36,117 nucleotides of DNA, taken from NCBI RefSeq assembly GCF_030552475.1, contig NZ_JAUPED010000024.1, positions 1 to 36,117 of the forward strand, read 5' to 3'. The notes under the pieces were generated by a model. That model was not told the DNA's origin and ran no database searches. It saw nothing but the letters and a program-made list of their open reading frames with translations. Shown in pieces: positions 8,380 through 24,028 of the stretch; the first letter of the stretch is position 1; every line of letters starts with the position of its first letter. This DNA is from Mariniflexile sp. AS56 (GTDB lineage: Bacteria > Bacteroidota > Bacteroidia > Flavobacteriales > Flavobacteriaceae). The translations under genes and the position numbers were made by a program.

Positions 8380-10464
8380 ATGAAAAATAATTACAAAGTA
8401 GCATGTATAATCATTGCAATACTATGTCAAATTCAAGTTTTAAAAGCTCAAGATTTTTCAGTAATACCAAGTACCTTTAAAGGTGGTAGCACAGGGAGTT
8501 CAACAAACGATTCAAGAACATTAGAATATGCTAATAATGAAGCTTCACTTAGTCAATATGGTGGTTTTTTAGACGTAAAACTACCCGCTACAGGACATTT
8601 TAGAACAGAAATTTATAATGATAAATGGTACATGGTAGATCCAGAAGGCTATTTATATTTTGGGATAGGAATAAATTCGGTTAATGCAGAATCAGGTTAT
8701 ACTAACGTAAATTTGCCTAACGATTTAAAGGATGCTGGGTTTAATCATTTAGCTAATTGGTCCGATTTTGAGAGTATAAATAGTGGTTCAGAAAAAATAC
8801 CATATGTTTTTAGAGAATTGTTTATAGTTGGGTACAAAAATGAATCTCAAGCAAATAAGGATCTTTATGGAGATGGAATAATTCCTGTATTTGATACAGA
8901 ATTTTTATCCTTCGCCGATAACTTAGCGAAAACCGTTGCTTTAAAAAAAGATGACCCGTATTGCATTGGTGTGTTTTCGGATAATGAAATGCCAATTTAT
9001 TCCAACAGTACATATGGAGAATTGTTAGATCGCTATTTGGATATAACTAACAAAACAAATTCTAATTATTTAGGCGCTCACGATTGGATGATAGCAAGAA
9101 AGGGAACTAATTATACAATCGATAATGATGATCGTAATGATTTTCATGGATATTTAATGAGTACATATTACAGGATTGTCCATACAGCCATTAAGAAATA
9201 TGCGCCAAATATGCTTTATTTGGGGTCTAGATTGCATGGTGCTGCAAAAAATTATGAATCAATTTATAAAGATAGTGCACCGTTTATAGATGTATTTAGT
9301 GTTAATTATTATGGACCATTTGAGCCTGACACTACTCTCTTGGAAATGTGGACAGAACAATCTGGAAAACCTTTTATGATTAGTGAGTTTTACGCTAAGG
9401 GTTTTGATGTCGATTTAGACAATAGTGGTGGTGCCGGGTATCATGTGCCAACACAAGTAGATAGAGCAGCTTATTTTGAAAACTTCGCTATTAATTTATT
9501 AGAAAGTAAAGGTTGTTTAAGTTATCAATGGTTTAGGTTTCAGGATGACGCCAGTAATAAAGGTGTTATTAATGCAAATGGAGAATGGTATTCAGAACTT
9601 AAAACATCTCTTATAAAAATAAGTAAAGACATCTATAATTTTAGAGAATTTCTCGCTTTAGAAGATGCTAGTAATACTGGTGCTGATGGAGATAAACTGT
9701 ATGCTATAGAAGATAGTTTTACAAGAGGTGGTTCAAATGCAAATAAAAACTATGATGGCGAATTATTGATTGTAAAAGAAAGCCCAACGAATGCGGATTT
9801 TTCTAGACGAACTTGGTTGAAGTTTGATGTTAGTGAGTATGTTGCAATTGAATCTGCAACCTTACATTTAACCGGAAACCAATCTAGTGGAAATGCTTTT
9901 GATATGACGTTGCTTGGTGTAGAAGACGATTCGTGGTCAGAGGAAAGCATAACATGGAATAATGCACCCGAAGCTTCAACAGTAATAGCAGGTGTTTTTT
10001 CATCAAATGGCAATGTAGGTTCTAGATATGACTCGTATCAAATTGATATTACAGATTATGTTAGGGCTGAAATTGCAGGTAATAAGATCGTTTCCTTAAA
10101 TTTGGTAGATGCCGCTTCTTCCAATGAACAATTTAGAATAAGAGAAAAGGAAGATGCAGCCAATAATTCGCCTGCTTACATAACAATTTTAACAACAGAA
10201 TTATCGACTGAAGCTCCTATTAAGTCAAACTTCAAAATGTATCCTAATCCCGTAAATGATAGATTAGAAATAGACTCTAAAACTATTATTCAAATCATAG
10301 AGTTTTATAATATAAATGGAGCTGTTATTTTAACTAAAAACAGTTTTAACTCTAAAAATGCAGTTGTAGACGTAAGTACGCTATATCCTGGTGTTTATTT
10401 AGTAAAAATAACAAATATAAATGGTGAAGTAGAAGTACTCCGCTTGCTTAAAGATGCCTATTAA
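8380..10464 (+). CDS. Type IX-secreted GH50-like (clan GH-A) glycoside hydrolase with DNRLRE-type module
   Basis: This is a secreted retaining glycoside hydrolase of 694 residues. It has a signal peptide (about 1-23), a catalytic TIM barrel (about 60-420), a DNRLRE/CBM96-like beta-sandwich (about 445-605, WLKFDVSEY and WNNAPEAS motifs) and a C-terminal type IX sorting domain (about 618-694, starting MYPNPVNDRLEI). The barrel resembles GH50: a WYMVDPEGYLYFGIGINS entry strand, probable acid/base Glu203 (FSDNEMP), YLGSRL, SVNYYGP, probable nucleophile Glu336 (ISEFYAKG) and the WFRFQDD end motif. Characterised GH50 enzymes are mainly agarases, but nothing else in this PUL suggests agar, so the substrate is left open. 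It is the last gene of the first operon, 81 bp after the DUF4998-type gene, and has a distant paralogue at 22583-24028. As the only type IX cargo it is a good candidate for first attack on the polymer. Confidence 0.8.
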   Translation: MKNNYKVACIIIAILCQIQVLKAQDFSVIPSTFKGGSTGSSTNDSRTLEYANNEASLSQYGGFLDVKLPATGHFRTEIYNDKWYMVDPEGYLYFGIGINSVNAESGYTNVNLPNDLKDAGFNHLANWSDFESINSGSEKIPYVFRELFIVGYKNESQANKDLYGDGIIPVFDTEFLSFADNLAKTVALKKDDPYCIGVFSDNEMPIYSNSTYGELLDRYLDITNKTNSNYLGAHDWMIARKGTNYTIDNDDRNDFHGYLMSTYYRIVHTAIKKYAPNMLYLGSRLHGAAKNYESIYKDSAPFIDVFSVNYYGPFEPDTTLLEMWTEQSGKPFMISEFYAKGFDVDLDNSGGAGYHVPTQVDRAAYFENFAINLLESKGCLSYQWFRFQDDASNKGVINANGEWYSELKTSLIKISKDIYNFREFLALEDASNTGADGDKLYAIEDSFTRGGSNANKNYDGELLIVKESPTNADFSRRTWLKFDVSEYVAIESATLHLTGNQSSGNAFDMTLLGVEDDSWSEESITWNNAPEASTVIAGVFSSNGNVGSRYDSYQIDITDYVRAEIAGNKIVSLNLVDAASSNEQFRIREKEDAANNSPAYITILTTELSTEAPIKSNFKMYPNPVNDRLEIDSKTIIQIIEFYNINGAVILTKNSFNSKNAVVDVSTLYPGVYLVKITNINGEVEVLRLLKDAY

Positions 10465-10725
10465 TTTATTTATAATACAAGGTAGTTTATCTAAATCTAG
10501 TATTTCTTCTTTTAAAGATTTTAAGTTAATTCTGTTTTTTGTGGTTCTTAATTAGTTTTATTTCAATGGTTAATATTTTACAACTTATTTGCATATTACT
10601 GGTATTCAGTTATGTGTAAATAAGTTTCTAATTAAAATAAAGATTAGTTGTAGTAGGTTTTGTTTTGATAAAAATCGTTTAAAGAAAAACGAGGGTATTA
10701 TTTATATAAAAAACCTTGGCTAATG

Positions 10726-13700
10726 TTATTTAGAAAAAGGTAAACTTTCTTCTTTATCTTCAAAAACATCAAAATTTTCCTTAATAAATTCAGAAGGTGT
10801 TTTTCCATACTGTTTCTTAAACGATTTAGAAAAGTAGTTATGTGAATTAAAACCAACTGCGAACCCAATTTCGTTAACCAAATAATCACCTGTTTTCATA
10901 AGTGAAACAGCATGTTTTAGTCTAATACTTCTTATAAACTCTGTTGCAGATTGATTGGTTAATGATGTTAGTTTTCTATGTAAATGTGTCCTACTAAGGT
11001 GTAATTTATCGGTTAAATGTTCAACAGAAAAATCAGGATTACTAATGTTTTGTTCAACAACACTTATGGCGTTTAATAGAAATTTTTTGTCTAAGTCTAG
11101 AACCTCAATATCACTTGTCCAAACCTCTTGTTGAGATGAAAATAATGAACGAAGTGCTCTTCTCGAGTTAAGTAAATTATGTATTTGAGCAACCAATACA
11201 TCTTCATTAAATGGTTTGGGGACATAAAGGTCTGCGCCAGAATTAATTCCTGATATTCTATCTTTTATGGTGTCTAACGCCGTGAGTAATATAACAGGCG
11301 TATGGCTAATTCGAATATCATTTTTAATTTTAGAACAGAGCTCTACTCCATCCATTTCAGGCATCATAATATCCGAAATCACTAAATCTGGAAATAGGGT
11401 ATGAATTTGTTGATACGCTTCCTTACCGTTTTTTGCTGTTGCAATACGAAAGTGGTTTTGTAATGCACTTGATAAAAAGTCTAGTAATTCTAGGTTATCT
11501 TCTGTTATAAGTATTAAGGCTTCTTGGTTTTTTGTGTGCTCTTCAGTTTGATGCTCTGAAGTTATAATTTCTGATGATTCAAAAGAAAAACTATTTGGTT
11601 GCGTGACACTTGATGTATCTGCAATATGCATTGCGGTGTTAGGTTGGTATTGAGGTATACAAATACAGAAAGCAGAACCTTCATCTTCTAAAGTACTTAC
11701 TATTAATTGTCCGTTGTGCATGGAGATGTAGTTAGTAGATAACGATAGACCAATACCTGTGCCTCGGTTATAGTTTTTTTCTGTTTGGTAAAATCTTTCA
11801 AATATTTGCGGAAGGGTTTCTTCTGAAATACCGTATCCAAAATCAGAAATGTTAATAGAAATATAATCTTCATTAATATGCTCTCCAATAGTGTATATAT
11901 TCCAATTTGGCTTAAATGTTGGTTTTTTATTGTTTTTTATGGTTAATGTTATACTCGTATTATCAGGAGAATACTTAAAAGCATTTGATAGCATGTTAAC
12001 CAAAACCTTATCTAGTTTATCGGTGTCGAAGTCAATTTTTAAGTTAGGAACTTCTGATATAAATTGAAAATTAATACCACGTTGAAGTGCGTGTTCTTCA
12101 AAACAAGAAAAAACATTTTTACAGAAAGCTATTATATCTGTATTTACAGAAAGTAGTTTTAACTTACCGGAATCGGCACGTCTAAAATCTAGAAATTGAT
12201 TGATTAGCCTGAGTAATCTATCGGTATTATTTTTAATTAATTCTAGTTGCTTGTTAGAAGCAAGGGTGTTGGTATCTAGTTTTAATAATCTATTTACAGG
12301 ACCTTGAATTAGGGTTAGTGGTGTTCTAAATTCGTGAGAAATATTTGTGAAAAACTGAAGTTTCATTTGATGTAACTGTTCTTCGTTTTCACGATGTATT
12401 TTTTCTAATTTTATTTGAGACCTTAAATTCTGACGGTTTATTACTTGTTTTCTGAAAAAATAAATAGAACCTATTAAGGCTAATAAATAAAGCACATAAG
12501 CATACCATCGAGCCCAAATAGGAGGGATTATATTAATGTTTATTTTTGTAGAGTCTATGTTCCACACACCATCATTATTAGCGCTTTTAACTTCAAAAAT
12601 ATAATTGTTAGGAGGAATGTTGGTGAAATTGGCCCTACCAGTATAATCGGTTTCAATCCATTGATCATTAAATCCTAAAAGTCTATATTTAAATATATTT
12701 TTCTTTGGATTAATATAGTTGTTAGAAGTAAATTGAAATCCAATAAAATTTTGTGTATGGTGTAGTTCTAAAGGCGTATTGTTACTGAAAGGAATACTTT
12801 TATTATTAACTTTTATGGATATAATACTGGTTTTTGGTGGTTTTGGATTTTTTATAATTCTTGAAGGAGAAAATCTTATAACACCATTGGATCCACCAAA
12901 AAACAAATCGCCATTAGTGGCTTTTAGAGCAGATGTAGGGTGAAATAAATCGCTCTGTAAACTATTATTGGTTATGTAAGATTGGGCTATATTAGTTTGC
13001 ATATCGAATTTACACAAGCCATTTTCGGTTGTTAACCAAAGATTTTTTTTATCATCTTCTAATATTGAAAACACTTCGTTTCCAGGTAGGCCATTTTTAA
13101 TGGTATAATTTTCAAATTTCCCTGTTCTAGGATTAAATTTATCAAGTCCACCACCATTTGTACCTAACCATAAAAAACCATTACTATCTTCATGTATACA
13201 GTATAAGTAATTATGAGATACGCTTTGTGGATGGTTTTTACTTTGAAAATAATGTATAAATTCTTCACTGCCTTTCTTAAGTAGGTTAAGCCCATTTTGA
13301 GTAGCAAACCAGACGTTTTCTTGCTTGTCTTCAATAATAAAATGTACTTTATTGTTTGATATGGATTTGATATTTAGTGGGTTGTGTGTTGAGCGTGTAA
13401 TCTCTTTTGTTTTAAAATCATAAAAGAAAGCGCCTAAAGGGTAGTCGCTAACCCAAACACCATTATTAGTAGTTAAAATATCTAAAGCTTGAAATCCGGT
13501 TTCGAAATTAACAATGAGACGTTCAAAATTTGTTTTGCCTTTTTCGCGGTATAGTACACCATTTCCATAAGTGCCTACCCACAAAGTTTCATTTTTATCG
13601 TAAGATAAAGATTTTATATTTTCAATAGCTTTGCCTTGGTAATTAATAGGCAGTTTCTTAAATACGTTGGTTCTGGGATTGTAAAAATTTATGCCACCGT

Positions 13701-14814
13701 CATCTAAACCAATTAATACATTCTCACTATTTGGTACCTGAGTAAAACAGCTAACAATATTACCGTTTAAAGTTCTTTTTGTAGTCGATTGGTTGTAGCG
13801 TATAAAAGAATTATTATGTGCGCTATGAAAAGCTAAACCTCCCATCCAAGTACCAATCCATATATTTTGTTGAGAATCTTTATAGAGCGACCAAATGGAA
13901 TGGTTGGGTAGTTCTGAATATTTTTGTTGATCAATGTGGTGGCTTACTTTAAAATCTTCAATTAAAGTAATGCCCTTGTAAGTGGCTACCCAAATTCTAT
14001 TTTTTTCATCTTTTAAAAGACTTCTAACTTGGTTGCTTGGCAATTTTAGTTGTTTTGGAGTGTCTTCTAATATAGAGTAGTGCGTTTTTTTGTTATCAAT
14101 TTTATTAATGCACAGTAATCCTTTGGCTTCATAACCAATCCAGATGTTATCTTTTTCTATTAAAACGGATCTTACTAGGTTTCTTAGCCCTTTTGTTAAA
14201 AACTGAAAAGTGTTAGAACCCTTCGTAGCAAAATAAATATCGCCATCATTATAAAACACCCAAATAGTGCCTTCATCATCAATAGAAATACAGCTAACTT
14301 TTCCTGTAGTATTTTTAGTTTTTTTATAAAGTGCTCTATTTTTTTTCAGATCTAAAGTACCAAAACCATTTTCATCCGAAAACCAAAATTTATCGTCGGT
14401 ATCCTGAAATATAGATGTGATATTTTTGCCTATTATATTCCCATAATCATCTTTAATCGAATATCTTTTAAAGTAGTCGTTGTTGCGTAGGTATTCGCAA
14501 AGACCATTTTCTGTGGCGACCAAAATATTACCACTATGGCTTTTATAAAGTTTGTTTATTCTGTTGGATGGAATTGTGGATTCATTATTTTGTACATGGC
14601 TATAGCGTTTAGTTTTAGTGGAGTTATAGGCAAAAACACCATTGTTTGTGCTAAACCAAATAAAGCCCAAGTCATCTTCCAATATCGAAGTTACTTGAGA
14701 ATACGCTACACCTCCGTTGGGTGTAACTTTACAAATGGATATATAGGGATCGGTGTTAGCATGCAAAAATATCGTAAAGCAGCTAAACATTACAATATAG
14801 AATAAAAGTCTCAT
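10726..14814 (-). CDS. Hybrid two-component system regulator (sensor kinase fused to AraC-type response regulator)
   Basis: This is the one-protein sensor and transcription factor typical of Bacteroidota PULs. I start it at ATG 14814, giving a signal peptide (MRLLFYIVMF onwards) and 1362 residues; an 11-codon longer form begins at 14847. Domains in order are about 14 Reg_prop repeats forming two seven-bladed periplasmic propellers (about 25-680), a Y_Y_Y domain (about 690-760), one transmembrane helix (about 765-787), HisKA with phospho-His827 (SHEFRTP), HATPase (LSNAFKYSP, GYGISEE, GTGIGLS), a receiver with phospho-Asp1148 (ISDIMMPEMDG) and Lys in VPKPF, then an AraC helix-turn-helix (about 1260-1350). 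All catalytic residues look intact. It lies between the two susCD operons, convergent with the first and divergent from the GH88 operon. It probably senses an oligosaccharide in the periplasm and activates the PUL. Confidence 0.95.
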   Translation of the reverse strand: MRLLFYIVMFSCFTIFLHANTDPYISICKVTPNGGVAYSQVTSILEDDLGFIWFSTNNGVFAYNSTKTKRYSHVQNNESTIPSNRINKLYKSHSGNILVATENGLCEYLRNNDYFKRYSIKDDYGNIIGKNITSIFQDTDDKFWFSDENGFGTLDLKKNRALYKKTKNTTGKVSCISIDDEGTIWVFYNDGDIYFATKGSNTFQFLTKGLRNLVRSVLIEKDNIWIGYEAKGLLCINKIDNKKTHYSILEDTPKQLKLPSNQVRSLLKDEKNRIWVATYKGITLIEDFKVSHHIDQQKYSELPNHSIWSLYKDSQQNIWIGTWMGGLAFHSAHNNSFIRYNQSTTKRTLNGNIVSCFTQVPNSENVLIGLDDGGINFYNPRTNVFKKLPINYQGKAIENIKSLSYDKNETLWVGTYGNGVLYREKGKTNFERLIVNFETGFQALDILTTNNGVWVSDYPLGAFFYDFKTKEITRSTHNPLNIKSISNNKVHFIIEDKQENVWFATQNGLNLLKKGSEEFIHYFQSKNHPQSVSHNYLYCIHEDSNGFLWLGTNGGGLDKFNPRTGKFENYTIKNGLPGNEVFSILEDDKKNLWLTTENGLCKFDMQTNIAQSYITNNSLQSDLFHPTSALKATNGDLFFGGSNGVIRFSPSRIIKNPKPPKTSIISIKVNNKSIPFSNNTPLELHHTQNFIGFQFTSNNYINPKKNIFKYRLLGFNDQWIETDYTGRANFTNIPPNNYIFEVKSANNDGVWNIDSTKININIIPPIWARWYAYVLYLLALIGSIYFFRKQVINRQNLRSQIKLEKIHRENEEQLHQMKLQFFTNISHEFRTPLTLIQGPVNRLLKLDTNTLASNKQLELIKNNTDRLLRLINQFLDFRRADSGKLKLLSVNTDIIAFCKNVFSCFEEHALQRGINFQFISEVPNLKIDFDTDKLDKVLVNMLSNAFKYSPDNTSITLTIKNNKKPTFKPNWNIYTIGEHINEDYISINISDFGYGISEETLPQIFERFYQTEKNYNRGTGIGLSLSTNYISMHNGQLIVSTLEDEGSAFCICIPQYQPNTAMHIADTSSVTQPNSFSFESSEIITSEHQTEEHTKNQEALILITEDNLELLDFLSSALQNHFRIATAKNGKEAYQQIHTLFPDLVISDIMMPEMDGVELCSKIKNDIRISHTPVILLTALDTIKDRISGINSGADLYVPKPFNEDVLVAQIHNLLNSRRALRSLFSSQQEVWTSDIEVLDLDKKFLLNAISVVEQNISNPDFSVEHLTDKLHLSRTHLHRKLTSLTNQSATEFIRSIRLKHAVSLMKTGDYLVNEIGFAVGFNSHNYFSKSFKKQYGKTPSEFIKENFDVFEDKEESLPFSK

Positions 14815-14893
14815 TTGGTAGTTGGTTAAAAAAAAACTAAAGTACAAATAATATCAAGTTTAGAGTAAGGATGTTTTTAGTAAAAACTAGTAG

Positions 14894-14916
14894 ACATGTT
14901 GTTAATTGGAACATGT
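14894..14916. repeat. Paired ACATGT palindromes in the divergent control region
   Basis: The 6-bp palindrome ACATGT occurs at 14894-14899 and 14911-14916, 17 bp apart, and a third time at 15002-15007 just before the GH88 start. All three lie in the 197-bp region shared by the divergent regulator and GH88 genes. Spacing close to two helical turns would suit a dimeric binder. Function is inferred only. Confidence 0.3.
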
Positions 14917-14926
14917 GTATCTATAT

Positions 14927-14955
14927 GAAACATAATTGATACTAATAGGGAACAA
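14927..14955 (-). promoter_or_regulatory. Candidate promoter of the hybrid regulator gene
   Basis: Read on the minus strand, TTG (14955-14953) is followed after 18 bp by TATGTTTC (14934-14927), one base off the TAnnTTTG -7 consensus. This resembles the Bacteroidota housekeeping promoter and would give a leader of about 100 nt before ATG 14814. The ACATGT pair would lie just downstream of the start point, allowing repression or autoregulation. Confidence 0.3.
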
Positions 14956-15011: not shown

Positions 15012-16226
15012 ATGAAGCGAATTACTTTTTTAATCTTTTTTGTTTTTTTATTTCAAGCTTGCGGTTTTTATCAAAATAAAAAAGTAAGTCAAGATAAATT
15101 AATTAATACTATAACCGAACAGCTTTCTTATTTTCCTGAAATAAAAGATACGCTAAACCTCAAAACTTCTAGTAGAGTTTTTCCAAGAACGCTAACACCA
15201 TCGGGTAAACTTCAGTTAGTAGGAAAAAGAGATTGGACAAGCGGATTTTATCCTGGTGTTTTATGGTCCATGTACAATTTAACAGGAGAATTAAAGTGGA
15301 AGGAACAAGCAGAACTTTATACCTCGATATTAGAAAGCGAACAATTTAACGCATCAAACCACGATTTAGGATTTAAAATGATGCCAAGTTTTGGCGAAGG
15401 CTACAAGGTGACCAAGAATGAAAAATATAAGGACGTTTTAATTCAATCGGCAAAAACGTTGATTACCCGTTTCGATGAAAAAATAGGATGTATTAAATCT
15501 TGGGATCATAATAAAGATAAATGGGATTTTCCTGTTATAATAGATAATTTAATGAATTTGGAATTGCTGTTCTGGGCATGGAAGGAAACAGGCGATTCGG
15601 TGTTTTATAATATAGCAAATACACATGCTAAAACAACCATGAAACATCATTTCAGAAACGATTATAGTTCGTATCACGTGGTGGGCTATGATATGGAAAC
15701 GGGCGGGGTGGTTTCAAAAAACACACATCAAGGCTATGCCGATGATTCGTCTTGGGCGCGTGGACAAGCTTGGGCACTTTATGGTTTTACTATGATTTAT
15801 AGAGAAACAAAAGATCCTATATATTTAACCCAAGCAGAAAATGTGGCGAATTACATTTTAAATATAGCCAAATTACCGGAAGACTATGTGCCGTATTGGG
15901 ATTTCGATGTAAAAAATATAGAAGCTGAACCACGAGATGCTTCGGCGGCAGCCGTTATAGCTTCAGCTTTTTTCGAGCTCAGTGGTTATTCCGAAGAAAA
16001 TAGTAAAACATATATAAGTACAGCAAATCATATTTTAACGTCTTTATCATCAGAAAAATATTTTAATACCAAAGGCGCCAATAAAGGGTTTTTATTGAAA
16101 CATTCTACAGGATCCAAACCAAAAGATTCTGAAATTGATGTGCCATTAATTTATGCAGACTACTACTATCTAGAGGCTTTATTAAGGCGATCCAAACTTA
16201 ACAACCAAACTATAACTAAAAACTAG
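15012..16226 (+). CDS. GH88 unsaturated uronyl hydrolase, lipoprotein
   Basis: This enzyme removes the 4,5-unsaturated uronic acid left at the non-reducing end of oligosaccharides by a polysaccharide lyase, hydrating the double bond of the uronate. The 404-residue product has a lipoprotein signal (FQAC, Cys17) and an (alpha/alpha)6-barrel of normal length. The two expected aspartates are visible: Asp118 in NHDLGF and Asp178 in VIIDNLMNLELLFWA, 60 residues apart as in the family. A GYADDSSWARGQAW stretch follows near residues 240-255. It heads the second operon, five bases before susC2. With the lyase at 28223-30472 it makes the clearest case that the PUL target contains uronic acid. GH105 is the main alternative family, but the motifs fit GH88 better. 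Confidence 0.92.
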   Translation: MKRITFLIFFVFLFQACGFYQNKKVSQDKLINTITEQLSYFPEIKDTLNLKTSSRVFPRTLTPSGKLQLVGKRDWTSGFYPGVLWSMYNLTGELKWKEQAELYTSILESEQFNASNHDLGFKMMPSFGEGYKVTKNEKYKDVLIQSAKTLITRFDEKIGCIKSWDHNKDKWDFPVIIDNLMNLELLFWAWKETGDSVFYNIANTHAKTTMKHHFRNDYSSYHVVGYDMETGGVVSKNTHQGYADDSSWARGQAWALYGFTMIYRETKDPIYLTQAENVANYILNIAKLPEDYVPYWDFDVKNIEAEPRDASAAAVIASAFFELSGYSEENSKTYISTANHILTSLSSEKYFNTKGANKGFLLKHSTGSKPKDSEIDVPLIYADYYYLEALLRRSKLNNQTITKN

Positions 16227-16231: not shown

Positions 16232-19186
16232 ATGAAAAAAAAGCAATTGTTTTTTAAACTAATATTCCTGTCTTTCATTTTATTGTCTTTTACAAGTAAT
16301 GGACAAAATAAAAATGTTTCAGGAAATGTAACAGACCTTGCAGGCATACCTTTACCTGGGGTGAATGTTTTAGTAAAAGGTACTAAAAAAGGTTCAAGTA
16401 CTGATTTTGATGGTAATTACAATATCTCTGTAGTTACAGGGCAAACCCTTTTGTTTTCTTATGTGGGATTTAAAACGAAAGAAGTTGTTGTGGGAAGCAT
16501 AAATACTTATTCTGTTATTTTGGAAACAGATAATGCTCAATTAGATGAAATTATAGTTGTAGGATATGGTTCTCAAAGGAAAAGTGATATTACAGGTGCG
16601 GTTTCTTCTGTAGCTAAAGAACGATTAGAAATGGTCTCTAACACAAATGTTGCGCAGGCCATTCAAGGTTCAGTTTCAGGCGTTATAGTTAACAATAATA
16701 GTTCTAGCGCATCTGGTGGCGATGTCTCTATTATCATTCGAGGTAGAAATTCAATCTCTGCTAACAATAGCCCGTTGATAGTTTTAGATGGTATTCCATA
16801 CAGTGGTAGTCTTAATGATATCAATCCAGTTGATATTGAGGCCATGGAGGTCTTAAAAGACGCATCAGCTTCAGCAATATATGGTTCAAGAGGTGCCAAT
16901 GGTGTGATTTTAGTTACTTCAAAAAAAGGGAAAAGCGGAAAAGTGCGATTTAGCTATGATGGTTATTATGGTGTGCTTGAGGCTACTAATTTGCCTGATG
17001 TACTGTCAGCATCAGAATTTTATGATTTCAAAGAAACAAGAGAGCCAGGAGTATTTGATGATTCAGAAATAGAAATTTATGAAAGTGGAAGAGGTGTAGA
17101 CTGGATTGATTTAGCACTTCGATCAGGTTCCACTTTACAACATAACCTCTCGGTTTCAGGAGGTTCAGATAAGTTTAAATATTATATATCTGGTACGTTG
17201 TTAGATGTTAAGGGAATAACAGTGAATGATAATTTTCAACGATCAACACTTCGGCTTAATCTAGAATCCAATGCAACAAATTGGCTTAAAATAGGAACAA
17301 ACACACAATTGAGTTATAGTGACTCTAGTGGATTAGGACCATCATATAGTGATGCATTCTATATGAATCCTTTAACAACAAGTCATGATGAAAATGGCAA
17401 TCTTACTATTTATCCATGGCCAGAGGATGTTTTTTACGGTAATCCTTTACAAAATACATTAGCAGATAATAGTGATAAAAGGTATAAAGTGATTTCTAAT
17501 CTTTATTTCGATGTAGATTTAGGTTTTATCCCTGGTCTATCATATAGATTAAATTCGGGTATTGAATATACAAATTCAAGACAAGGAAGTTATTGGGGCG
17601 TAAATACAAAGAGAGGTTTTGAGAATCAAGGAGAAGCACAAGTCCGAAATGATTTTAGAACCAACGTATTGTTGGAGAATATTGTAACCTATAAAAAAGA
17701 CTTTGGAAAAAATAATTTATTTTTAACTGGATTATATAGTTTTCAAGAAGACTTAAGAGATGACCATGATTTAGATTCTCAAGGGTTTCCTAACGATGTA
17801 CTTACTTGGCGTCAAGCAAACGTAGCAGCTTTAGTAGAACCTGGTTATACGTATCAAAAAAGTACGGTCTTATCTTCAATGTTACGTCTAAATTATGGAT
17901 TTGATAATAGATATATATTGACCTTAACAGGAAGACGAGATGGGTATTCGGCATTTGGTGATTCTACTAAATTTGGTAATTTCTACTCAGCTGCTACGGC
18001 ATGGAATATTCATAATGAATCCTTTATGGAAAATTCAGGTGTTACCACTCTAAAATTAAGAGCGTCTTATGGTGAAAATGGAAATCAAGCCGTGTCGCCT
18101 TACGAGTCATTAACGCAATTAGTAGAACGTTCATATGTAGATGATAGCGGTACTTCTTTGCCAGGATACATTACAGATAATGAATTAGGGAACCCTAATT
18201 TAGGATGGGAAACAACTAGTGCGTTTAACCTTGGATTAGATTATGGATTTTTAAAGAATAGAATTAAAGGTAGTATTGAAGTATATCAATCAAGTACAAC
18301 AGATTTATTGACAAGCAGATCAATTTCTCCTTTTCACGGAGCTACAGATATAACCACAAATATTGGTGAAATACAAAATGAAGGTTTAGAATTATCTATA
18401 TCCACGAATGCCATTAGAACAGATAGTTTTAGCTGGGATATAGACGCTAACGTTTCATTTAACAGAAATGAAATTGTAGATCTATATGGAGACAAAACAG
18501 ATGATGTTGGAAATAATTGGTTTATAGGGAAACCTATTAGAGTGTATTATGCCTATGAGTATGATGGTGTTTATCAATTAGGAGATGATATTGCCAACGG
18601 CCCTCAACCAGATGCAGAACCAGGATATGCTAAAGTTAAAGACCAAATTACGGTTGACACGGATGGAGATGGAATTCCTGATGCTACCGATGGAGATATT
18701 AACGCAGACGATAGAATTATTTTAGGACAAAGAGATCCAAAAACAATAGCGGCTTTTAGTATGAATTTTTCCTATAAAAATTTCGGATTATATGTAATGT
18801 CTCAGGGAGCATTTGGTGCCATACAACAAAATGGTTTAAAAAGTGATAATGTTTTTGGGGAGGTTCGAAGAAATACGACAAAAAAGAATTGGTGGACTCC
18901 TGATAATCCTACAAATGATTTTTATGCTAATATCGATGGGGCAAATATAGATGGTGTTGGTTTTTATGAGAGCACGGATTATTGGAGAATAAAGGACATT
19001 ACCTTATCCTATGATTTAGGACAAAATGTACTCGATAAACTAGGCATAGAAAAATTTAGATTGTATGTCACAGGGCGTAACTTATTTACCTTCACTAATT
19101 ATGAAGGTTTAGACCCCGAGTTTACAGGAACTCGTGATGCACCACTACAACAAACATTTACATTAGGATTTAATGTTAATTTCTAA
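16232..19186 (+). CDS. SusC/RagA-type TonB-dependent outer-membrane transporter (pair 2)
   Basis: This is the second oligosaccharide-importing TonB-dependent barrel of the locus. It has 984 residues with a signal peptide (about 1-24, ending SNGQ), a carboxypeptidase-regulatory-like domain (about 28-98, GVNVLVKG and STDFDGNY), a DEIIVVGYG segment (105-113), a plug domain ending near IYGSRGANGVILV, and a barrel ending in FTLGFNVNF. A long Asp-rich loop (around residues 808-830, TDGDGIPDATDGDINADDR) may bind calcium and is longer than the matching loop in SusC1. It is 85 residues shorter than SusC1 and clearly diverged from it, so the pairs probably handle different oligosaccharides or sizes rather than being a recent duplication. 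The preceding gene is GH88 and the next is SusD2. Confidence 0.95.
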   Translation: MKKKQLFFKLIFLSFILLSFTSNGQNKNVSGNVTDLAGIPLPGVNVLVKGTKKGSSTDFDGNYNISVVTGQTLLFSYVGFKTKEVVVGSINTYSVILETDNAQLDEIIVVGYGSQRKSDITGAVSSVAKERLEMVSNTNVAQAIQGSVSGVIVNNNSSSASGGDVSIIIRGRNSISANNSPLIVLDGIPYSGSLNDINPVDIEAMEVLKDASASAIYGSRGANGVILVTSKKGKSGKVRFSYDGYYGVLEATNLPDVLSASEFYDFKETREPGVFDDSEIEIYESGRGVDWIDLALRSGSTLQHNLSVSGGSDKFKYYISGTLLDVKGITVNDNFQRSTLRLNLESNATNWLKIGTNTQLSYSDSSGLGPSYSDAFYMNPLTTSHDENGNLTIYPWPEDVFYGNPLQNTLADNSDKRYKVISNLYFDVDLGFIPGLSYRLNSGIEYTNSRQGSYWGVNTKRGFENQGEAQVRNDFRTNVLLENIVTYKKDFGKNNLFLTGLYSFQEDLRDDHDLDSQGFPNDVLTWRQANVAALVEPGYTYQKSTVLSSMLRLNYGFDNRYILTLTGRRDGYSAFGDSTKFGNFYSAATAWNIHNESFMENSGVTTLKLRASYGENGNQAVSPYESLTQLVERSYVDDSGTSLPGYITDNELGNPNLGWETTSAFNLGLDYGFLKNRIKGSIEVYQSSTTDLLTSRSISPFHGATDITTNIGEIQNEGLELSISTNAIRTDSFSWDIDANVSFNRNEIVDLYGDKTDDVGNNWFIGKPIRVYYAYEYDGVYQLGDDIANGPQPDAEPGYAKVKDQITVDTDGDGIPDATDGDINADDRIILGQRDPKTIAAFSMNFSYKNFGLYVMSQGAFGAIQQNGLKSDNVFGEVRRNTTKKNWWTPDNPTNDFYANIDGANIDGVGFYESTDYWRIKDITLSYDLGQNVLDKLGIEKFRLYVTGRNLFTFTNYEGLDPEFTGTRDAPLQQTFTLGFNVNF

Positions 19187-19203
19187 ATAATAAATTAAAC
19201 ACT

Positions 19204-20832
19204 ATGAAAACAATAAAATATATTTTAGCATTTACACTTTTAGGATCTGTATTTGTAGGATGTTCGGATCTTGAATTAGTAGAAGATCCGAGGGCTAATA
19301 TAGCCGCAGATAATTTATACAAAGACAAAGCTGGATTTGAGGTTGGATTGAATGGTTTATATGCTCAATACAGAAGAGAAAGAGGAGGGGATACGTATGG
19401 CAGTGGAAATGATTTAATGATTGATCCAGCAGTTACAGGTACAGATAATATGTATGGAAACGAACGCACTGGTTGGGCTAGAGGAGGCAATGAGCTTGAC
19501 GCTAGAAATACACCAACATATTCTGGTAATCGTCAATTATTAAATTGGTTGTATGAAATGAACAATGCGGCCAATACAATTATAGCTAGAGCCAAAAACC
19601 CAGCTATTGATTGGACTGACAAAGAGAAGAATAGAATCGTTGGTGAAGCTCGTTTACTAAGAGCTTGGGTTTATAGACATCTTTCTAGCTTATATGGTGA
19701 TATTCCATTAGTTTTAGAAGAGTCTAGTGGAGCAAATGTTATTACAGATTGGGTGCGAACTCCAATAGGAAAGGTTAGAGAAGCCATGGAAGCCGATTTA
19801 TTATTTGCTGAAGAACATTTACCAGAAACATCTTCAAATGGAGGAAAAGTGGTTAAAGGTGTAGCTACGCACTATTTAGCAGAATTATACTTGACTTTAG
19901 GAAGAGATGGAGAGGCGGTAACCAAAGCAAATGATTTAATAACTAAAGGACCTTTTAGTTTAATTACAGAAAGGTATGGTGTCAGAGCAAATCAACCAGG
20001 TACATCATTTACTGATATGTTTATAGATGGAAACTCAAACAAATCAGAAGGAAATACGGAAGTGCTTTGGGTAATGCAGCATGAGCTGGAAGTAAATGGA
20101 GGAGGAGATAATATTATGAGGCGTTGGCACCGAGCGAGGTCCCAAGATATTAGAGTTGATGGTAAATCAAATACCATTATGTTTTCTGTGGCAAATGGAG
20201 GTAGAGGCTTACAACGAGTTGCTCCAACACGTTATGCTTTAGAATTATATGAGACTTCTGATCATAGAGGAGGGCGTTTTGCATGGCGAGATTATGAAGT
20301 GTTAAATAATCCTGATAATGTTCCTAGTGGACGCGCCATTGGAGATACTATATTTTTCGATTGGAAAGGTAAAGATGAAAAACAGCAAAATAATTATTGG
20401 CCAAGTACTAGAAAGTGGGATTATGCTAACCCATTGGATTTAGCTGGATCTAGGAGCTATAATGATCAAGTTTATTTAAGATTAGCAGAAACCTATTTAA
20501 TTTTAGCAGAGGCACAAATGAACACTGGAGATCTAGAAGGGGCTGCAAAATCTATTAATAAATTAAGATTGCGTGCAAACGCTAGTTTAATAACTGCTGG
20601 AGATGTGGATATTGATTTTATTTTGGATGAACGTTCTAGAGAGTTATACTCTGAAGAACATAGAAAATATACTTTAGTACGTTTAGGTAAATGGTATGAA
20701 AGGTTTCAGCTTTACAATAAAGTTGGAGCTCCAAATGGAGATGAACGTCATACATTAATGCCGATTCCTCAAGATGCCATTGATGCTAATGGAATCCCCA
20801 TGACTCAAAATCCTGGATACGACAATGAATAG
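19204..20832 (+). CDS. SusD/RagB-type outer-membrane glycan-binding lipoprotein (pair 2)
   Basis: This is the lipoprotein partner of SusC2, encoded 17 bp downstream of it. The 542-residue product has a lipoprotein signal (FVGC, Cys near 20), the N-terminal SusD region (NLYKDKAGFEVGLNGLYAQY), TPR-like helices (ARLLRAWVYRHLSSLYGDIP, near 155) and the C-terminal RagB block (RLAETYLILAEAQMNTGD, ERSRELYSEEHRKYTLVRLGKW, TQNPGY end). It is about 120 residues shorter than SusD1, nearer the usual family size. A strong intrinsic terminator begins 11 bases after its stop codon, so it ends the GH88-susC2-susD2 operon. Aromatic residues that might contact sugar cannot be assigned without a structure. Confidence 0.94.
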   Translation: MKTIKYILAFTLLGSVFVGCSDLELVEDPRANIAADNLYKDKAGFEVGLNGLYAQYRRERGGDTYGSGNDLMIDPAVTGTDNMYGNERTGWARGGNELDARNTPTYSGNRQLLNWLYEMNNAANTIIARAKNPAIDWTDKEKNRIVGEARLLRAWVYRHLSSLYGDIPLVLEESSGANVITDWVRTPIGKVREAMEADLLFAEEHLPETSSNGGKVVKGVATHYLAELYLTLGRDGEAVTKANDLITKGPFSLITERYGVRANQPGTSFTDMFIDGNSNKSEGNTEVLWVMQHELEVNGGGDNIMRRWHRARSQDIRVDGKSNTIMFSVANGGRGLQRVAPTRYALELYETSDHRGGRFAWRDYEVLNNPDNVPSGRAIGDTIFFDWKGKDEKQQNNYWPSTRKWDYANPLDLAGSRSYNDQVYLRLAETYLILAEAQMNTGDLEGAAKSINKLRLRANASLITAGDVDIDFILDERSRELYSEEHRKYTLVRLGKWYERFQLYNKVGAPNGDERHTLMPIPQDAIDANGIPMTQNPGYDNE

Positions 20833-20842
20833 GTTCTTTTAT

Positions 20843-20885
20843 AAATCTACCTCCTTTCTTAAAGGATTGTGAGGTAGATTTTTTT
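20843..20885 (+). terminator. Intrinsic terminator after susD2
   Basis: AAATCTACCTC (20843-20853) pairs perfectly with GAGGTAGATTT (20871-20881) and runs into a T-tract (20879-20885). The loop also contains a smaller nested hairpin (CCTTT-CTT-AAAGG, 20853-20865). This is the clearest terminator in the window and separates the GH88-susCD operon from the degradative operon. Confidence 0.85.
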
Positions 20886-21136
20886 AACTATTTAATTGAA
20901 TAAGATTCCACGATAATTATTCTGGAACTTCCCATTGAAATGGGGGTTCTCATGAAATCAAATTTTATCGAGTACCTTTTAAAACAATGAAGAATGAGTA
21001 AAATGGTAATTTGAATACAGCGTTTCGGTTTTTGCATAAAGGCCAAAATAAAGTTCTGTGCTGAGCATAGCCGATGTTTCAACTACAAGGCAGTTCGCTT
21101 CAAAAATAATTTAAATAAGAGTAAATAGAAGGAAAT
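20886..21136. other. Gene-free leader with possible decayed or dispersed repeat
   Basis: With the terminator this makes a 304-bp gap before the first sulfatase. There is no convincing gene. Minus-strand frames are open for short stretches (for example 20979-21068, 29 codons, with no recognisable family), and the composition is less AT-extreme than other gaps here, with GC-containing blocks around 21020-21105. That looks like a relic of coding DNA or a dispersed intergenic repeat. I found no -7 element matching TAnnTTTG upstream of the sulfatase, so the promoter of the degradative operon is not located. Confidence 0.35.
20924..20950 (+). promoter_or_regulatory. Stable hairpin in the leader of the degradative operon
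   Basis: GGAACTTCCCATT (20924-20936) pairs with AATGGGGGTTCT (20939-20950) around a two-base loop, with one bulged C and G-T pairs. No T-tract follows, so it is not a classical terminator. It could be an mRNA-stabilising or processing element, or part of a repeat. Confidence 0.35.
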
Positions 21137-22561
21137 ATGAGAAAGCCATATTCTAATAGGTTGTTACTTGTCATTGGATTCAATCTAATGATATTTGGCT
21201 GTTATGCGCAAAATAATGCATCTATCAAAAAAACTCCAAACATCATACTCATTATGGCTGACGACCTCGGTTACGGTGATGTAGGTTTTAATGGAAACAC
21301 AAAAATTATAACACCACATTTAGATGCTATGTCAAAAGAAGGTGTTATACTTCAAAATTTTTATGCCGCAGCACCTTTATGTTCACCTACACGTGCAAGT
21401 GTTTTAACAGGAAGAAGCCCTTTTAGGCAAGGCGTTTTTGCAGCCCATACAGGAGGTATGAGACCTGCAGAAAAAACAATTCCAGAGTATCTAAAGAAAG
21501 AAGGTTATGCCACAGGATTTTTTGGAAAATGGCATATAGGTTGGATAGAACCAGATAAAGTGGAATCTAGAGGAAGTTATTCCCCACCATGGCACCATGG
21601 ATACGATGAAGCATTTGCAACTAAAAGTGCTGTTCCTACATGGAATCCAACAAAAACACCAGAAGGTTGGACAAGCTGGGGAGCTATGGACGACGGTTCG
21701 TGGGGCGGATCTATTTATATTGAAAACGGAACACCTGTAACCGATAATTTAGAGGGCGACGATAGTCGTATTATTATGGATCGTGCCATTCCTTTTATAG
21801 AAAAATCAATTTTAGAAGATAAACCCTTTTTAGCTACTATTTGGTTTCATACACCGCACGAACCTGTGGTTGCTGGTCCAGAGTATTTAGCAAAATACCC
21901 AAACCTTTCTGAAGGGCAAAAACACCTGTATGGCTGTATTACAGCGATGGACGATCAAATTGGGCGCTTACGTAAGTTCTTAAAAGAAAAGAACATTGAA
22001 GATAATACCATTATCTTTTTTACAAGTGATAATGGGCCTTCGGGACCAATTACTAAAAAAGGAATTGCTTCTGCGGGGCCGTTTCGTGGGCATAAACATC
22101 TTATGTACGAAGGTGGTTTACGAGTGCCTTCTTTAGCACTTTGGCCAGGGAAAATTAAAGCCAATCAAAAGTTAGATTATCAGGCTTCAACGGTAGATTA
22201 TTTACCTACTATTTTAGATATCCTCGATATTAAACCAAGCAAAAAAATTCCCTTGGATGGCGTGAGTTTAAAACCAGTACTATTAAATGGCTCTTCCGAA
22301 GAAAGAACCGCTCCTATCGCTTCAGGTTATCAACGTTTGTATAATGGAACAGAACTTTATGCATTGGTTAGTGGACAATATAAAATTTGCATTCCGAATA
22401 AAGGAGATAGCATGATGCTTTTCGATTTAAAAAGCGATCCTGGAGAAAAACATGATTTAGCTTCAGAAAAACCAGAAGTATTAAAAACTATGATGGAGGA
22501 ACTAGAAAAAATTAAAGCATCATGGAAAGATAGTCGTGAAGGAAAAGATTATCAGTGGTAA
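21137..22561 (+). CDS. S1-family sulfatase (arylsulfatase-like, CSPTR active site)
   Basis: This formylglycine-dependent sulfatase removes a sulfate ester from the glycan. The 474-residue protein has an N-terminal export signal (about 1-25); Cys22 after IFG might be lipidated, but the lipobox is poor and cleavage after YAQ is also possible. The N-terminal metal site is MADDLGYGD (40-48), and the active-site signature is Cys82 in CSPTRAS, with Cys converted to formylglycine. FGKWHIGW (about 130), the second metal site (FTSDNGPSGP, near 295-303) and the C-terminal subdomain are present. The length is typical of arylsulfatase-A-like S1 enzymes. It opens the degradative operon, 21 bases before the second GH50-like gene. 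No maturase is encoded in the window. The sulfate position attacked and the SulfAtlas subfamily cannot be read by eye. Confidence 0.92.
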   Translation: MRKPYSNRLLLVIGFNLMIFGCYAQNNASIKKTPNIILIMADDLGYGDVGFNGNTKIITPHLDAMSKEGVILQNFYAAAPLCSPTRASVLTGRSPFRQGVFAAHTGGMRPAEKTIPEYLKKEGYATGFFGKWHIGWIEPDKVESRGSYSPPWHHGYDEAFATKSAVPTWNPTKTPEGWTSWGAMDDGSWGGSIYIENGTPVTDNLEGDDSRIIMDRAIPFIEKSILEDKPFLATIWFHTPHEPVVAGPEYLAKYPNLSEGQKHLYGCITAMDDQIGRLRKFLKEKNIEDNTIIFFTSDNGPSGPITKKGIASAGPFRGHKHLMYEGGLRVPSLALWPGKIKANQKLDYQASTVDYLPTILDILDIKPSKKIPLDGVSLKPVLLNGSSEERTAPIASGYQRLYNGTELYALVSGQYKICIPNKGDSMMLFDLKSDPGEKHDLASEKPEVLKTMMEELEKIKASWKDSREGKDYQW

Positions 22562-22582
22562 AATTGAATAAAAATTAAAGTC

Positions 22583-24028
22583 ATGAAAAAGATATCTGTT
22601 ATATTTTTAGCAAGTTTATTCGTTGGTTGTGTAAATGCTAAACCTAAAGAAAAGCCTGCTACAAATGCTAATAAAGAGTATGTAATGGTCGATGCTAAGG
22701 TAAAAGTGTATCATAAAGACGGCACTCGAAGTTATAAAGATTATAAACCTTTTAAAACACGAACCGTAGAATTTCTTCCGGGTTATAAAGTACCTGAAAC
22801 TAAGCAAGAAATAAGTAAGTATGGCGGCGATTTAAGTAAACAAACAGGAATAGCTACAGGCTTTTTTCATGTTAAAAAAATAGGCGATCGTTGGTGGGGT
22901 ATCGATCCATTAGGCTTTCAATATTTCAATATTGCATTAAATAGTATCAATACAGGAAAATCTGAACGTACTCAAGCAGCGTTTACAAAAAAGTTTCAAA
23001 CTAAGGAAAATTGGATAAACCAAACGTTAAGCATGTTACAAGACAATGGTTTTAATAGTGCAGGTTCTTGGAGCGATGTGGATGCTATTGTAGAAGCAAA
23101 TAAAACCTTAGAAAAACCATTTCCGTATACGGTAAATTGGAATTTTATGAGTAGTTACGGGCGCAAACGTGGTGGCACACACCAGCAACCTGGACATACA
23201 GGATATCCAAACGATGCTATTTTTGTGTTTGATCCAGATTTTGAAACCTTTTGCGATACGCACGCTAAAAAACTGTTACAGTATAAAGACGATCCTAATT
23301 TATTCGGACACTTTTCCGATAACGAAATGCCTTTTAAATTTAAAGCTTTAGATAATTATTTAAGTTTAGCAACCGACGATTATGGTTATAAAGCCGGCGC
23401 CGCTTGGTTAAAAGAACAAGGAATTACTAAGGAAGAAATTACAAACGATCATCGTGAATTATTTATGGCTGTTGTAGCCGATAAATATTTTTCAATAATT
23501 TCTAAAGCCATTAAGAAGTACGATCCTAACCATATGTATATTGGTTCACGTTTTTATGCTAAAGAAAAAAATCACGAAGCATTTATGAAAACGGCTGGTA
23601 AATATCTCGATATCATTTCTAATAATTATTACAATTACTGGACGCCAGATGCTGAACAAATGCGCGATTGGGAAAAATGGTCTGATAAACCCTTTATAGT
23701 TACCGAGTATTATACAAAGGGAGAAGATTCTGGAATGGGAAATACTAGTGGAGCTGGATGGATTGTACGTACACAAGAAGATCGTGGTCTTTTTTATCAA
23801 AATTACAATCTAGCTTTATTGGAGTCTAAAAACTGTGTGGGTTGGCATTATTTTAAATATCAAGACAACGACCCAACGGCTAAAGGTGTAGATCCTTCAA
23901 ATATTGATGCTAATAAAGGTATTGTAAGTAATGAATATGAAGTTTGGGGCCCAATGATGAAAAAAATGGAAGCCGTAAATAATAATGTTTATAGTTTAAT
24001 CTCATATTTCGATAATAACAAAAAATAA
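22583..24028 (+). CDS. GH50-like (clan GH-A) glycoside hydrolase, lipoprotein
   Basis: This second GH50-like enzyme has 481 residues, a lipoprotein signal (LFVGC, Cys16) and no carbohydrate-binding or type IX module. The catalytic barrel spans about 90-475. Motifs shared with the protein at 8380-10464 are WWGIDPLGFQYF, SDNEMP (probable acid/base Glu248), YIGSRF, VTEYYTKG (probable nucleophile Glu375), GAGWIVRTQEDRG and a closing YFKYQDND. An extra segment of about 45 residues (around 170-215) is not present in the paralogue. The two are distant relatives, not a recent duplicate. One base separates its stop from the next start, so translation is probably coupled. It probably works at the cell surface or in the periplasm on shorter products; substrate unknown. 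Confidence 0.8.
   Translation: MKKISVIFLASLFVGCVNAKPKEKPATNANKEYVMVDAKVKVYHKDGTRSYKDYKPFKTRTVEFLPGYKVPETKQEISKYGGDLSKQTGIATGFFHVKKIGDRWWGIDPLGFQYFNIALNSINTGKSERTQAAFTKKFQTKENWINQTLSMLQDNGFNSAGSWSDVDAIVEANKTLEKPFPYTVNWNFMSSYGRKRGGTHQQPGHTGYPNDAIFVFDPDFETFCDTHAKKLLQYKDDPNLFGHFSDNEMPFKFKALDNYLSLATDDYGYKAGAAWLKEQGITKEEITNDHRELFMAVVADKYFSIISKAIKKYDPNHMYIGSRFYAKEKNHEAFMKTAGKYLDIISNNYYNYWTPDAEQMRDWEKWSDKPFIVTEYYTKGEDSGMGNTSGAGWIVRTQEDRGLFYQNYNLALLESKNCVGWHYFKYQDNDPTAKGVDPSNIDANKGIVSNEYEVWGPMMKKMEAVNNNVYSLISYFDNNKK

What the first reader, a model, noticed from the sequence alone, without database searches (positions are those of the whole stretch)
8380..24028. Two diverged GH50-like enzymes in a PUL that does not look agar-directed
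The proteins at 8380-10464 and 22583-24028 share the DPxG, SDNEMP, YxGSR, E(F/Y)Y.KG and closing aromatic-QD motifs of GH50-like clan GH-A barrels, with both Glu residues intact. Characterised GH50 enzymes are mainly agarases, yet the locus has GH88, a heparinase-like lyase and iduronate-sulfatase-like sulfatases and no recognised GH16, GH86 or GH117 agar set. They may form a clade with a new specificity, perhaps on a uronic-acid polymer.
Basis: partly seen in the sequence, partly recalled or inferred. Interest (0 to 1): 0.75.

Follow-up and report, generated by a model that had tools for sequence, protein, structure and literature searches.

The report
Non-agarase GH50 enzymes in sulfated-polysaccharide loci
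Two sugar-cutting enzymes of a family best known for digesting agar belong to lineages that lack part of the usual active-site signature, and one of them sits in a conserved gene set that seems built to digest a different, sulfated and perhaps uronic-acid-containing polysaccharide.

Summary
Both proteins are GH50 with both catalytic Glu (best solved match 5t3b, BpGH50). GH50b (22583-24028) groups with BpGH50, apart from the solved agarases; joining it to the agarase half of the tree is rejected (AU p 2.6e-4). GH50a (8380-10464) is a deep, long branch: nesting among solved agarases is rejected (p 7e-59), the base of the agarase half is not (p 0.105). R752 and E757 of SdAga50D are kept in 21 and 20 of 21 agarase-half rows, and in 0 of 34 rows of the BpGH50 half. 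Published: BpGH50 is inactive on agarose; two Mariniflexile species carrying GH50b orthologues are agar-negative. GH50b sits in a recurring locus with sulfatases and an esterase; GH88 occurs at 7 of 21 such loci and 0 of 17 agarase-half loci. The uronate reading is plausible, not shown: the window's 'heparinase-like' protein is weakly supported, the one sulfatase tested has carrageenan sulfatases as closest named relatives, and sister GH50s sit with GH3/GH10. The two enzymes lie in two SusC/D units. A distinct Bacteroidetes GH50 subfamily was already in print; its substrate is the open question.

The parts
8380..10464 (+). GH50a: hydrophobic N-terminus (signal peptide inferred), GH50 catalytic domain (about residues 40-428), CBM96 (439-598), T9SS type A sorting tail (620-683)
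22583..24028 (+). [quoted passage not shown] E248 and E375 are the predicted acid/base and nucleophile
1064..4273 (+). SusC-like TonB-dependent receptor of unit 1
   Evidence: Pfam
4263..6284 (+). SusD-like protein of unit 1
   Evidence: Pfam
6271..7599 (+). DUF4959-DUF5126-DUF5000 protein, probable surface glycan-binding protein (inference)
   Evidence: Pfam
7612..8298 (+). DUF4998 protein of unit 1
   Evidence: Pfam
10726..14847 (-). hybrid two-component regulator (HTCS)
   Evidence: Pfam
15012..16226 (+). GH88-family unsaturated uronyl hydrolase candidate
   Evidence: PF07470 E 9.6e-10; motifs (recalled)
16232..19186 (+). SusC-like receptor of unit 2
   Evidence: Pfam
19204..20832 (+). SusD-like protein of unit 2
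   Evidence: Pfam
21137..22561 (+). Sulf1: S1 sulfatase; top solved match 6bia (named only 'Sulfatase'), next iota-carrageenan sulfatases, then an exo-4S-kappa-carrageenan sulfatase and a GalNAc-6-sulfatase
24030..24995 (+). P0004: five-bladed beta-propeller, family unassigned
25028..26629 (+). Sulf2: sulfatase, subfamily not tested
   Evidence: Pfam; motif
26672..28099 (+). Sulf3: sulfatase, subfamily not tested
   Evidence: Pfam; motif
28223..30472 (+). P0005: rare 749-aa protein without a family match; candidate lyase, weakly supported
30524..31300 (+). SASA-family esterase
   Evidence: PF03629 E 4.1e-57
31326..32954 (+). right-handed beta-helix protein related to lacto-N-biosidases (called GH136-like here; the family number is recalled)
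   Evidence: 7v6m E 1e-32, lacto-N-biosidase 6kqs E 2.8e-27
32964..35663 (+). GH2 with malectin domain; NLKG and TEYG motifs

Best explanation
GH50b belongs to the BpGH50-type half of GH50, which keeps the GH-A catalytic pair but has lost two conserved residues of the canonical GH50 site. In this locus it most likely works as a periplasmic lipoprotein beta-glycosidase on oligosaccharides of a sulfated, acylated, uronic-acid-containing heteropolysaccharide, not on agarose. Inferred order: binding and import by SusC2/D2; chain cutting by a lyase (P0005, or the heparinase-like protein that stands in its place in a relative); GH88 removes the unsaturated uronyl end; SASA and Sulf1-3 remove ester and sulfate groups; GH50b cuts the exposed beta-linkage (probably of a galactosyl residue); the propeller, GH136-like and GH2 enzymes finish the fragments. 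GH50a, from the neighbouring SusC1/D1 unit, is a different deep lineage with a CBM96 and a T9SS tail and would cut at the cell surface. Shown here: lineage of GH50b, loss of R752/E757, recurring locus. Inferred: substrate, linkage, location, order of steps, and that GH50a acts on the same glycan.
For: Tree of 47 rows: central split 100/100; GH50b held with 17 agarase-half rows is rejected, p-AU 2.6e-4; GH50a held with the solved-agarase clade (6 rows) is rejected, p 6.7e-59. R752 kept in 21 of 21 and E757 in 20 of 21 agarase-half rows; each 0 of 34 in the BpGH50 half (outlier row L043 dropped). BpGH50 inactive on agarose and on neoagarotetraose (PMC8260779, passages). M. gromovii and M. fucanivorans are agar-negative (PMC11278836, tables section) though both carry GH50b orthologues, 73-75% identical. 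Sulf1 occurs at 11 of 11 Flavobacteriaceae GH50b loci, the window and its C46 copy included. GH88 at 7 of 21 GH50b loci against 0 of 17 agarase-half loci, Fisher p 0.011. L019 has GH88, PL8, a heparinase-type protein, GH50b, BNR_4, a heparinase-type protein and PL8 in a row. The protein in P0005's place in L012 (also beside P0005 in L011) is heparinase II/III-like: hhalign prob 98.7, E 1.9e-16, four control families at most 0.6. The B. plebeius GH50 gene neighbours GH105|GH154 and both are reported deleted in four strains (PMC12316285, passage).
Against: 14 of 21 GH50b loci show no GH88 in the stretch held (up to about 10 kb each side; some, such as L011 and L015, are cut short), and L018 and L020-L023 show none of the families sought. 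The GH88 profile was built from GH50b loci, which favours them; four of the 17 control loci are under 12 kb. P0005 is not shown to be a lyase: AF2 pLDDT 40, E 0.024 on one heparinase-type pair, E 0.11 against six of them aligned, and its two best single alignments cover different regions. Sulf1's closest named relatives are carrageenan sulfatases. Sister GH50s (41-50% identical) sit with GH3 and GH10. The NxKG motif of the GH2 does not discriminate here: 8 of 9 GH2 proteins looked at have it, those of the GH3/GH10 loci too. API ZYM beta-glucuronidase is negative in the Mariniflexile type strains. GH50a at the base of the agarase half is not rejected. The clades were named after the first tree had been seen. 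No activity was measured.
Confidence: 0.48

Rival explanations
1. GH50b acts on a sulfated galactan (agar-, porphyran- or carrageenan-related, possibly with minor uronic acid), so it is a galactan enzyme with a changed subsite rather than a uronate-polymer enzyme.
For: Sulf1, the constant partner of GH50b in Flavobacteriaceae, matches iota-carrageenan sulfatases (E 5.6e-57) and an exo-4S-kappa-carrageenan sulfatase (E 4e-53) next after 6bia (E 5.3e-59, named only 'Sulfatase'); the propeller P0004 has its best, sub-significant PDB sequence match in 3r4y (GH117 by recall; E 0.0096); a small core of Sulf1, GH50b, SASA and a further sulfatase, with P0004 in two of four, stands without GH88 in L004, L010, L083 and L084; the B. 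plebeius GH50 lies in a porphyran locus; one GH50b carrier, G832, has two GH86-type matches elsewhere in its genome.
Against: No GH16 within 30 kb of GH50b in 6 of 6 genomes tested, as far as the contigs reach, against GH16 within about 14 kb of agarase-half GH50s in 3 of 4 genomes; no GH86-type match in 5 of those 6 genomes, and in G832 it lies over 2 Mb from GH50b; agar-negative species carry GH50b; R752/E757 lost; the fold search for P0004 is led by a mannobiose phosphorylase and GH43 enzymes.
Confidence: 0.28
2. GH50b is a beta-1,3-type glucanase or xylanase-like enzyme, as are GH50_2 and GH50_3, and the uronate enzymes act on other parts of the polymer.
For: GH50 members PaBglu50A and Fsa16295Glu are beta-1,3-glucanases (PMC11079163, abstract and passages); sister GH50s sit with GH3 (scanned in L061, L063, L087) and GH10 (L061, L064).
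Against: Full GH50b loci carry sulfatases, esterase and GH88; no GH3 or GH10 among the 19 window proteins scanned; the P. aeruginosa GH50 row L059 (taken by me as GH50_2-like) keeps R752/E757 and lies in the agarase half.
Confidence: 0.14
3. The two GH50 genes have nothing to do with one another: two neighbouring loci with different substrates (this can be true together with any of the other readings of GH50b).
For: Separate SusC/D pairs with an opposite-strand regulator between them; GH50a has no close relative in 198 genomes searched (best place other than itself 39%), its nearest tree neighbour L079 is 38-39% identical, and no close copy of SusC1 or SusD1 was seen in the loci compared (33% at best, in L061).
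Against: Adjacent on one contig, and both outside the solved-agarase clade.
Confidence: 0.4

Closest known systems
BpGH50 (BACPLE_01683, PDB 5t3b by recall) and its subfamily enriched in gut Bacteroidetes (Giles 2017, title only)
   Same: Same half of the GH50 tree, 34% (GH50b) and 31% (GH50a) identity, no N-terminal CBM-like domain, R752/E757 absent; a GH105|GH154 gene next to it in B. plebeius.
   Different: BpGH50 and GH50a lack the 752-757 loop; GH50b has a loop of similar length with K and S. GH50b lies in a sulfatase/GH88 locus, BpGH50 in a porphyran locus.
SdAga50D (4bq2), PfGH50B (6xj9), AgWH50C (5z6p), GH50_1-type agarases (pairing of names with entries recalled)
   Same: GH50 barrel; N533, E534, E695, F742 conserved.
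   Different: 23-27% identity; other half of the tree; they have R752/E757 and an N-terminal CBM-like domain.
GH50_2 (PaBglu50A) and GH50_3 (Fsa16295Glu), beta-1,3-glucanases; VadG925 beta-galactosidase (PMC11079163, passages)
   Same: Show that GH50 is not only agarases.
   Different: A P. aeruginosa relative (L059) falls in the agarase half; GH50_3 is reported to keep the Arg and Glu; Fsa16295Glu and VadG925 were not in my tree.

Membership tests
GH50 | sequence homology over the catalytic barrel | tested here: met
   5t3b E 1.5e-46 and 3.1e-65; profile E 4.7e-91
GH50 | two catalytic Glu (E534, E695 of SdAga50D) | tested here: met
   both Glu in GH50a and GH50b
GH50 | retaining hydrolysis | not testable with these tools
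   needs enzyme
GH50_1 beta-agarase | clade with solved agarases | tested here: not met
   GH50b into the agarase half p 2.6e-4; GH50a into the solved-agarase clade p 6.7e-59; GH50a at the base of the agarase half not rejected, p 0.105
GH50_1 beta-agarase | site residues R752 and E757 (shared also by GH50_3, so not agarase-only) | tested here: not met
   K/S in GH50b, loop deleted in GH50a
GH50_1 beta-agarase | N-terminal CBM-like domain | tested here: not met
   GH50 domain starts near residue 40-50 in both
GH50_1 beta-agarase | activity on agarose | not testable with these tools
   indirect only: BpGH50 inactive; two agar-negative carriers of GH50b
BpGH50-type subfamily | clade with BpGH50 - GH50b | tested here: met
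   100/95 starred fork (28 rows) holding BpGH50 and GH50b
BpGH50-type subfamily | clade with BpGH50 - GH50a | tested here: inconclusive
   same side of the 100/100 split, but the other side is not rejected, p 0.105; long branch
GH117 (P0004) | sequence or fold match to GH117 | tested here: inconclusive
   3r4y E 0.0096 (GH117 recalled); fold search led by 7fip mannobiose phosphorylase and GH43 entries, model pLDDT 68
Heparinase II/III-like lyase (P0005) | profile match | tested here: inconclusive
   no such Pfam match; hhalign E 0.024 on one pair, 0.11 against six aligned, control families 0.37-0.75
GH2 beta-glucuronidase (32964-35663) | NxKG plus catalytic Glu motifs | tested here: met
   NLKG, NE, TEYG; criterion from PMC6712278, passage; not discriminating, 8 of 9 GH2 proteins looked at have NxKG
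GH2 beta-glucuronidase (32964-35663) | identity to reference enzymes and the further N and Y motifs of that criterion | not tested
   reference enzymes not aligned

The most novel reading that the evidence does not exclude
GH50b is the first recognisable uronate-polymer branch of GH50: an enzyme of the orphan BpGH50-type subfamily that cuts a beta-linkage next to uronic acid in a sulfated, acetylated polysaccharide, with P0005 a new lyase family of the same pathway; the gut BpGH50 would have a related, non-agar job.
Probability: 0.33. Interest if true: 0.72.

Novelty: new variant of a known kind. Interest (0 to 1): 0.5.

Why it matters
The nearest solved relative, BpGH50, has a structure but no agarose activity in the report whose passages I read. 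The recurring partners of GH50b (a fixed sulfatase, an esterase, in a third of loci GH88) give a concrete shortlist of substrates and pretreatments for finding the activity of an orphan GH50 lineage found in Flavobacteriaceae, Prolixibacteraceae and other Bacteroidota (judging by record titles, in lake and groundwater samples too), with relatives in gut Bacteroides. It also means that naming such genes agarases from the family alone would be unsafe.

Tried and rejected
Rejected: that the two GH50s are a recent local duplication (35% identity, different lineages). Rejected: that unit 2 is an ordinary agar locus. Led nowhere: structure prediction of P0005 (pLDDT 40); fold search could not separate the propeller families for P0004; P0005 relatives in 345 Bacteroidota genomes: only the window's own genome; paper searches for GH50 with GH88, GH117, GH136, PL8 or uronic acid listed nothing that I recognised as this locus, judged from titles and starts of abstracts (in one search 15 of 20 papers were listed).

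Dropped before counting: row L043 (poorly aligned) from the residue counts; the duplicate window rows L001 and L003 from the trees; L066 and L067 (and L005, L006) from locus counts because they are the same genomes as L010 and L014 (identical neighbours, and equal contig lengths). Of the 56 rows of the first tree (split 97/92) nine were left out of the second: four long ones (L043, L039, L057, L041; two of these belong to the agarase half) and five near-identical ones.

On rereading, I corrected: the top Sulf1 match is named only 'Sulfatase'; NxKG occurs in 8 of 9 GH2 proteins; one GH50b carrier (G832) has GH86-type matches; P0005's best alignments disagree in region. For these I lowered the best explanation from 0.50 to 0.48, the novel case from 0.35 to 0.33, and raised the first two rivals by 0.01 each.
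Full report
Where it is. The window is G000:C17:1-36117 of a 4,651,383-base, 49-contig genome. Two congeners (G003, G004) carry stretches whose neighbours are 100% identical to named Mariniflexile gromovii and M. fucanivorans records, on contigs of equal length, so the genus is Mariniflexile. Size, contig number and a 288,312-base contig fit the entry 'Mariniflexile sp. AS56' in PMC11278836 Table 1 (4.7 Mb, 50 contigs, N50 288.3 kb; tables section read); the strain name is an inference from these figures.

Observation. Both proteins are GH50. That 5t3b is BpGH50, 4bq2 SdAga50D, 6xj9 PfGH50B and 5z6p AgWH50C is recalled; the six SdAga50D site residues named in PMC11079163 fall on the right letters of 4bq2. 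GH50a has CBM96 and a T9SS tail; GH50b has no Pfam match at E 0.001 and a lipoprotein-like start. They lie in two different SusC/D units with a hybrid two-component regulator between them on the other strand.

Lineage. I built a tree of 56 GH50 catalytic domains and again with 47 after removing four long and five near-identical rows. The family splits in two, 97/92 and then 100/100. One half holds SdAga50D, PfGH50B, AgWH50C, a Catenovulum enzyme, a P. aeruginosa GH50 and Bacteroidota agarase-like proteins. The other holds BpGH50, GH50b with its orthologues, a B. finegoldii protein and, on a long branch, GH50a with one relative (L079). Putting GH50b with the agarase half is rejected (p 2.6e-4). 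Putting GH50a in the solved-agarase clade is rejected (p 6.7e-59), but with the agarase half as a whole it is not (p 0.105). The groups tested were chosen after the first tree; the solved agarases stand for the characterised ones, as I had no other characterised sequences.

Active site. PMC11079163 (passages) lists N533, E534, E695, F742, R752 and E757 of SdAga50D as shared GH50 site residues. N533, E534, E695 and F742 are kept in both window proteins. R752 is kept in 21 of 21 and E757 in 20 of 21 rows of the agarase half (L009 has Q); in the BpGH50 half 0 of 34 rows have R752 and 0 of 34 have E757 (L043 dropped as misaligned). GH50b has K434 and S439 in a rewritten loop; GH50a and BpGH50 lack the loop. 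The P. aeruginosa row keeps R and E, and GH50_3 is reported to, so these residues mark canonical GH50 sites rather than agarose alone.

Function of relatives. BpGH50 showed no exo-agarase activity on agarose and none on neoagarotetraose (PMC8260779, passages); PMC8551122 (passage) speaks of its deficiency for agarose cleavage. Its gene and the GH105|GH154 gene Bacple_01684 are reported deleted in four gut strains (PMC12316285, passage). M. gromovii and M. fucanivorans are agar-negative (PMC11278836 Table 2) though both have GH50b orthologues, 75% and 73% identical.

Locus. GH50b relatives were found in 16 named records at 64-76% identity, in G586, G786 and G832, and more distantly (41-50%) in others. 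In Flavobacteriaceae 11 of 11 GH50b loci (window and own C46 included) have Sulf1, and 8 of 11 have the propeller P0004. The order HTCS-GH88-SusC-SusD-Sulf1-GH50b-P0004-Sulf2-P0005-SASA-GH136-like-GH2 recurs, with gains and losses, in Maribacter (L024), Formosa (L012), M. fucanivorans (L014) and Flavivirga (L013), and in part in Algibacter (L011), Draconibacterium (L016) and a Prolixibacteraceae MAG (L025). A small core without GH88 stands in the own genome's C46 (L004), in M. gromovii (L010), L083 and L084. GH88 occurs at 7 of 21 GH50b loci and 0 of 17 agarase-half loci (Fisher p 0.011); the profile came from GH50b loci, some loci are cut short, and four control loci are under 12 kb, so this is supportive only. 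In one Bacteroidetes MAG (L019) GH50b lies in a row with GH88, two PL8 and two heparinase-type proteins.

Agar set. PF18206 (GH86-type; the link of this model to GH86 is recalled) is absent from 5 of 6 genomes with GH50b, the own one, M. gromovii and M. fucanivorans among them; the sixth, G832, has two matches over 2 Mb from its GH50b. Of four genomes with agarase-half GH50s, two have it. In the 6 genomes with GH50b no GH16 lies within 30 kb of it, as far as the contigs reach (C17 is only 36 kb); in 3 of 4 genomes with agarase-half GH50s a GH16 lies within about 14 kb. The own genome has six GH16 matches on other contigs; their substrates were not examined.

Weak points. P0005 has no family match, a poor model and weak heparinase-type alignments: E 0.024, 0.11 against six aligned, and the two best single ones in different regions. 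Only a neighbour in relatives, in P0005's place in L012 and beside it in L011, is clearly heparinase-like. Sulf1's closest named relatives are carrageenan sulfatases, with a GalNAc-6-sulfatase not far behind. P0004 is a five-bladed propeller whose family I could not settle. The sister group of GH50b lies with GH3 and GH10, so the BpGH50 half probably holds more than one specificity. NxKG, a criterion for GH2 beta-glucuronidases (PMC6712278, passage), is in the window's GH2 but also in 7 of the other 8 GH2 proteins looked at. API ZYM beta-glucuronidase is negative in the type strains.

Literature. Searches on GH50 with GH88, GH117, GH136, uronic acid, PL8 or Mariniflexile listed no paper that I recognised as describing this locus; I saw titles and starts of abstracts, and only 15 of 33 and 15 of 20 papers were listed. 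The library lacks most subscription journals, and Giles 2017 was seen as a title only.

Verdict. The core observation is confirmed, two neighbour labels are not. 'Not an ordinary agarase' is well supported for GH50b and fairly for GH50a. 'Uronic-acid polymer' is the best guess, not a result.

Noticed in passing
G000:C46:7601-9037 (in L004): A third GH50 in the same genome, 77% identical to GH50b, in a small Sulf1-GH50b-SASA-sulfatase cluster; no SusC or GH88 match in the first 20 kb of that contig.
   Followed up: partly
L057:11818-15489: Photobacterium plasmid pDA100 encodes a 1224-aa frame with a GH50-like domain in which the nucleophile position aligns with Ala and N533 with Ile; possibly a non-catalytic or different member.
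   Followed up: no
L056 (Bacteroides finegoldii plasmid 7): A locus beside rhamnose genes holds a BpGH50-type GH50, DUF6528, a GH71/99-like protein, GH31, a GH2 48% identical to the window's GH2, and an esterase 41% identical to the window's SASA.
   Followed up: partly
window 28223-30472: P0005 family looks very rare: in 345 Bacteroidota genomes only the window's own had a match; the other copies I saw (L011, L014, L024, two in L085) lie in GH50b loci, where I looked.
   Followed up: partly
L061, L063, L064, L065, L087: Sister GH50s (41-49% identical to GH50b) sit with GH3 (L061, L063, L087), GH10 (L061, L064), GH2 (L061, L064, L065), PKD or CBM6 proteins, suggesting another substrate for that branch.
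   Followed up: partly
window 1-546: C-terminal part of a phage-type integrase (PF00589) at the contig edge.
   Followed up: no
L022:11599-12915: A PL10-type pectic acid lyase gene (PF09492) follows GH50b; frames in L023 and L020 cluster with it but were not scanned.
   Followed up: no
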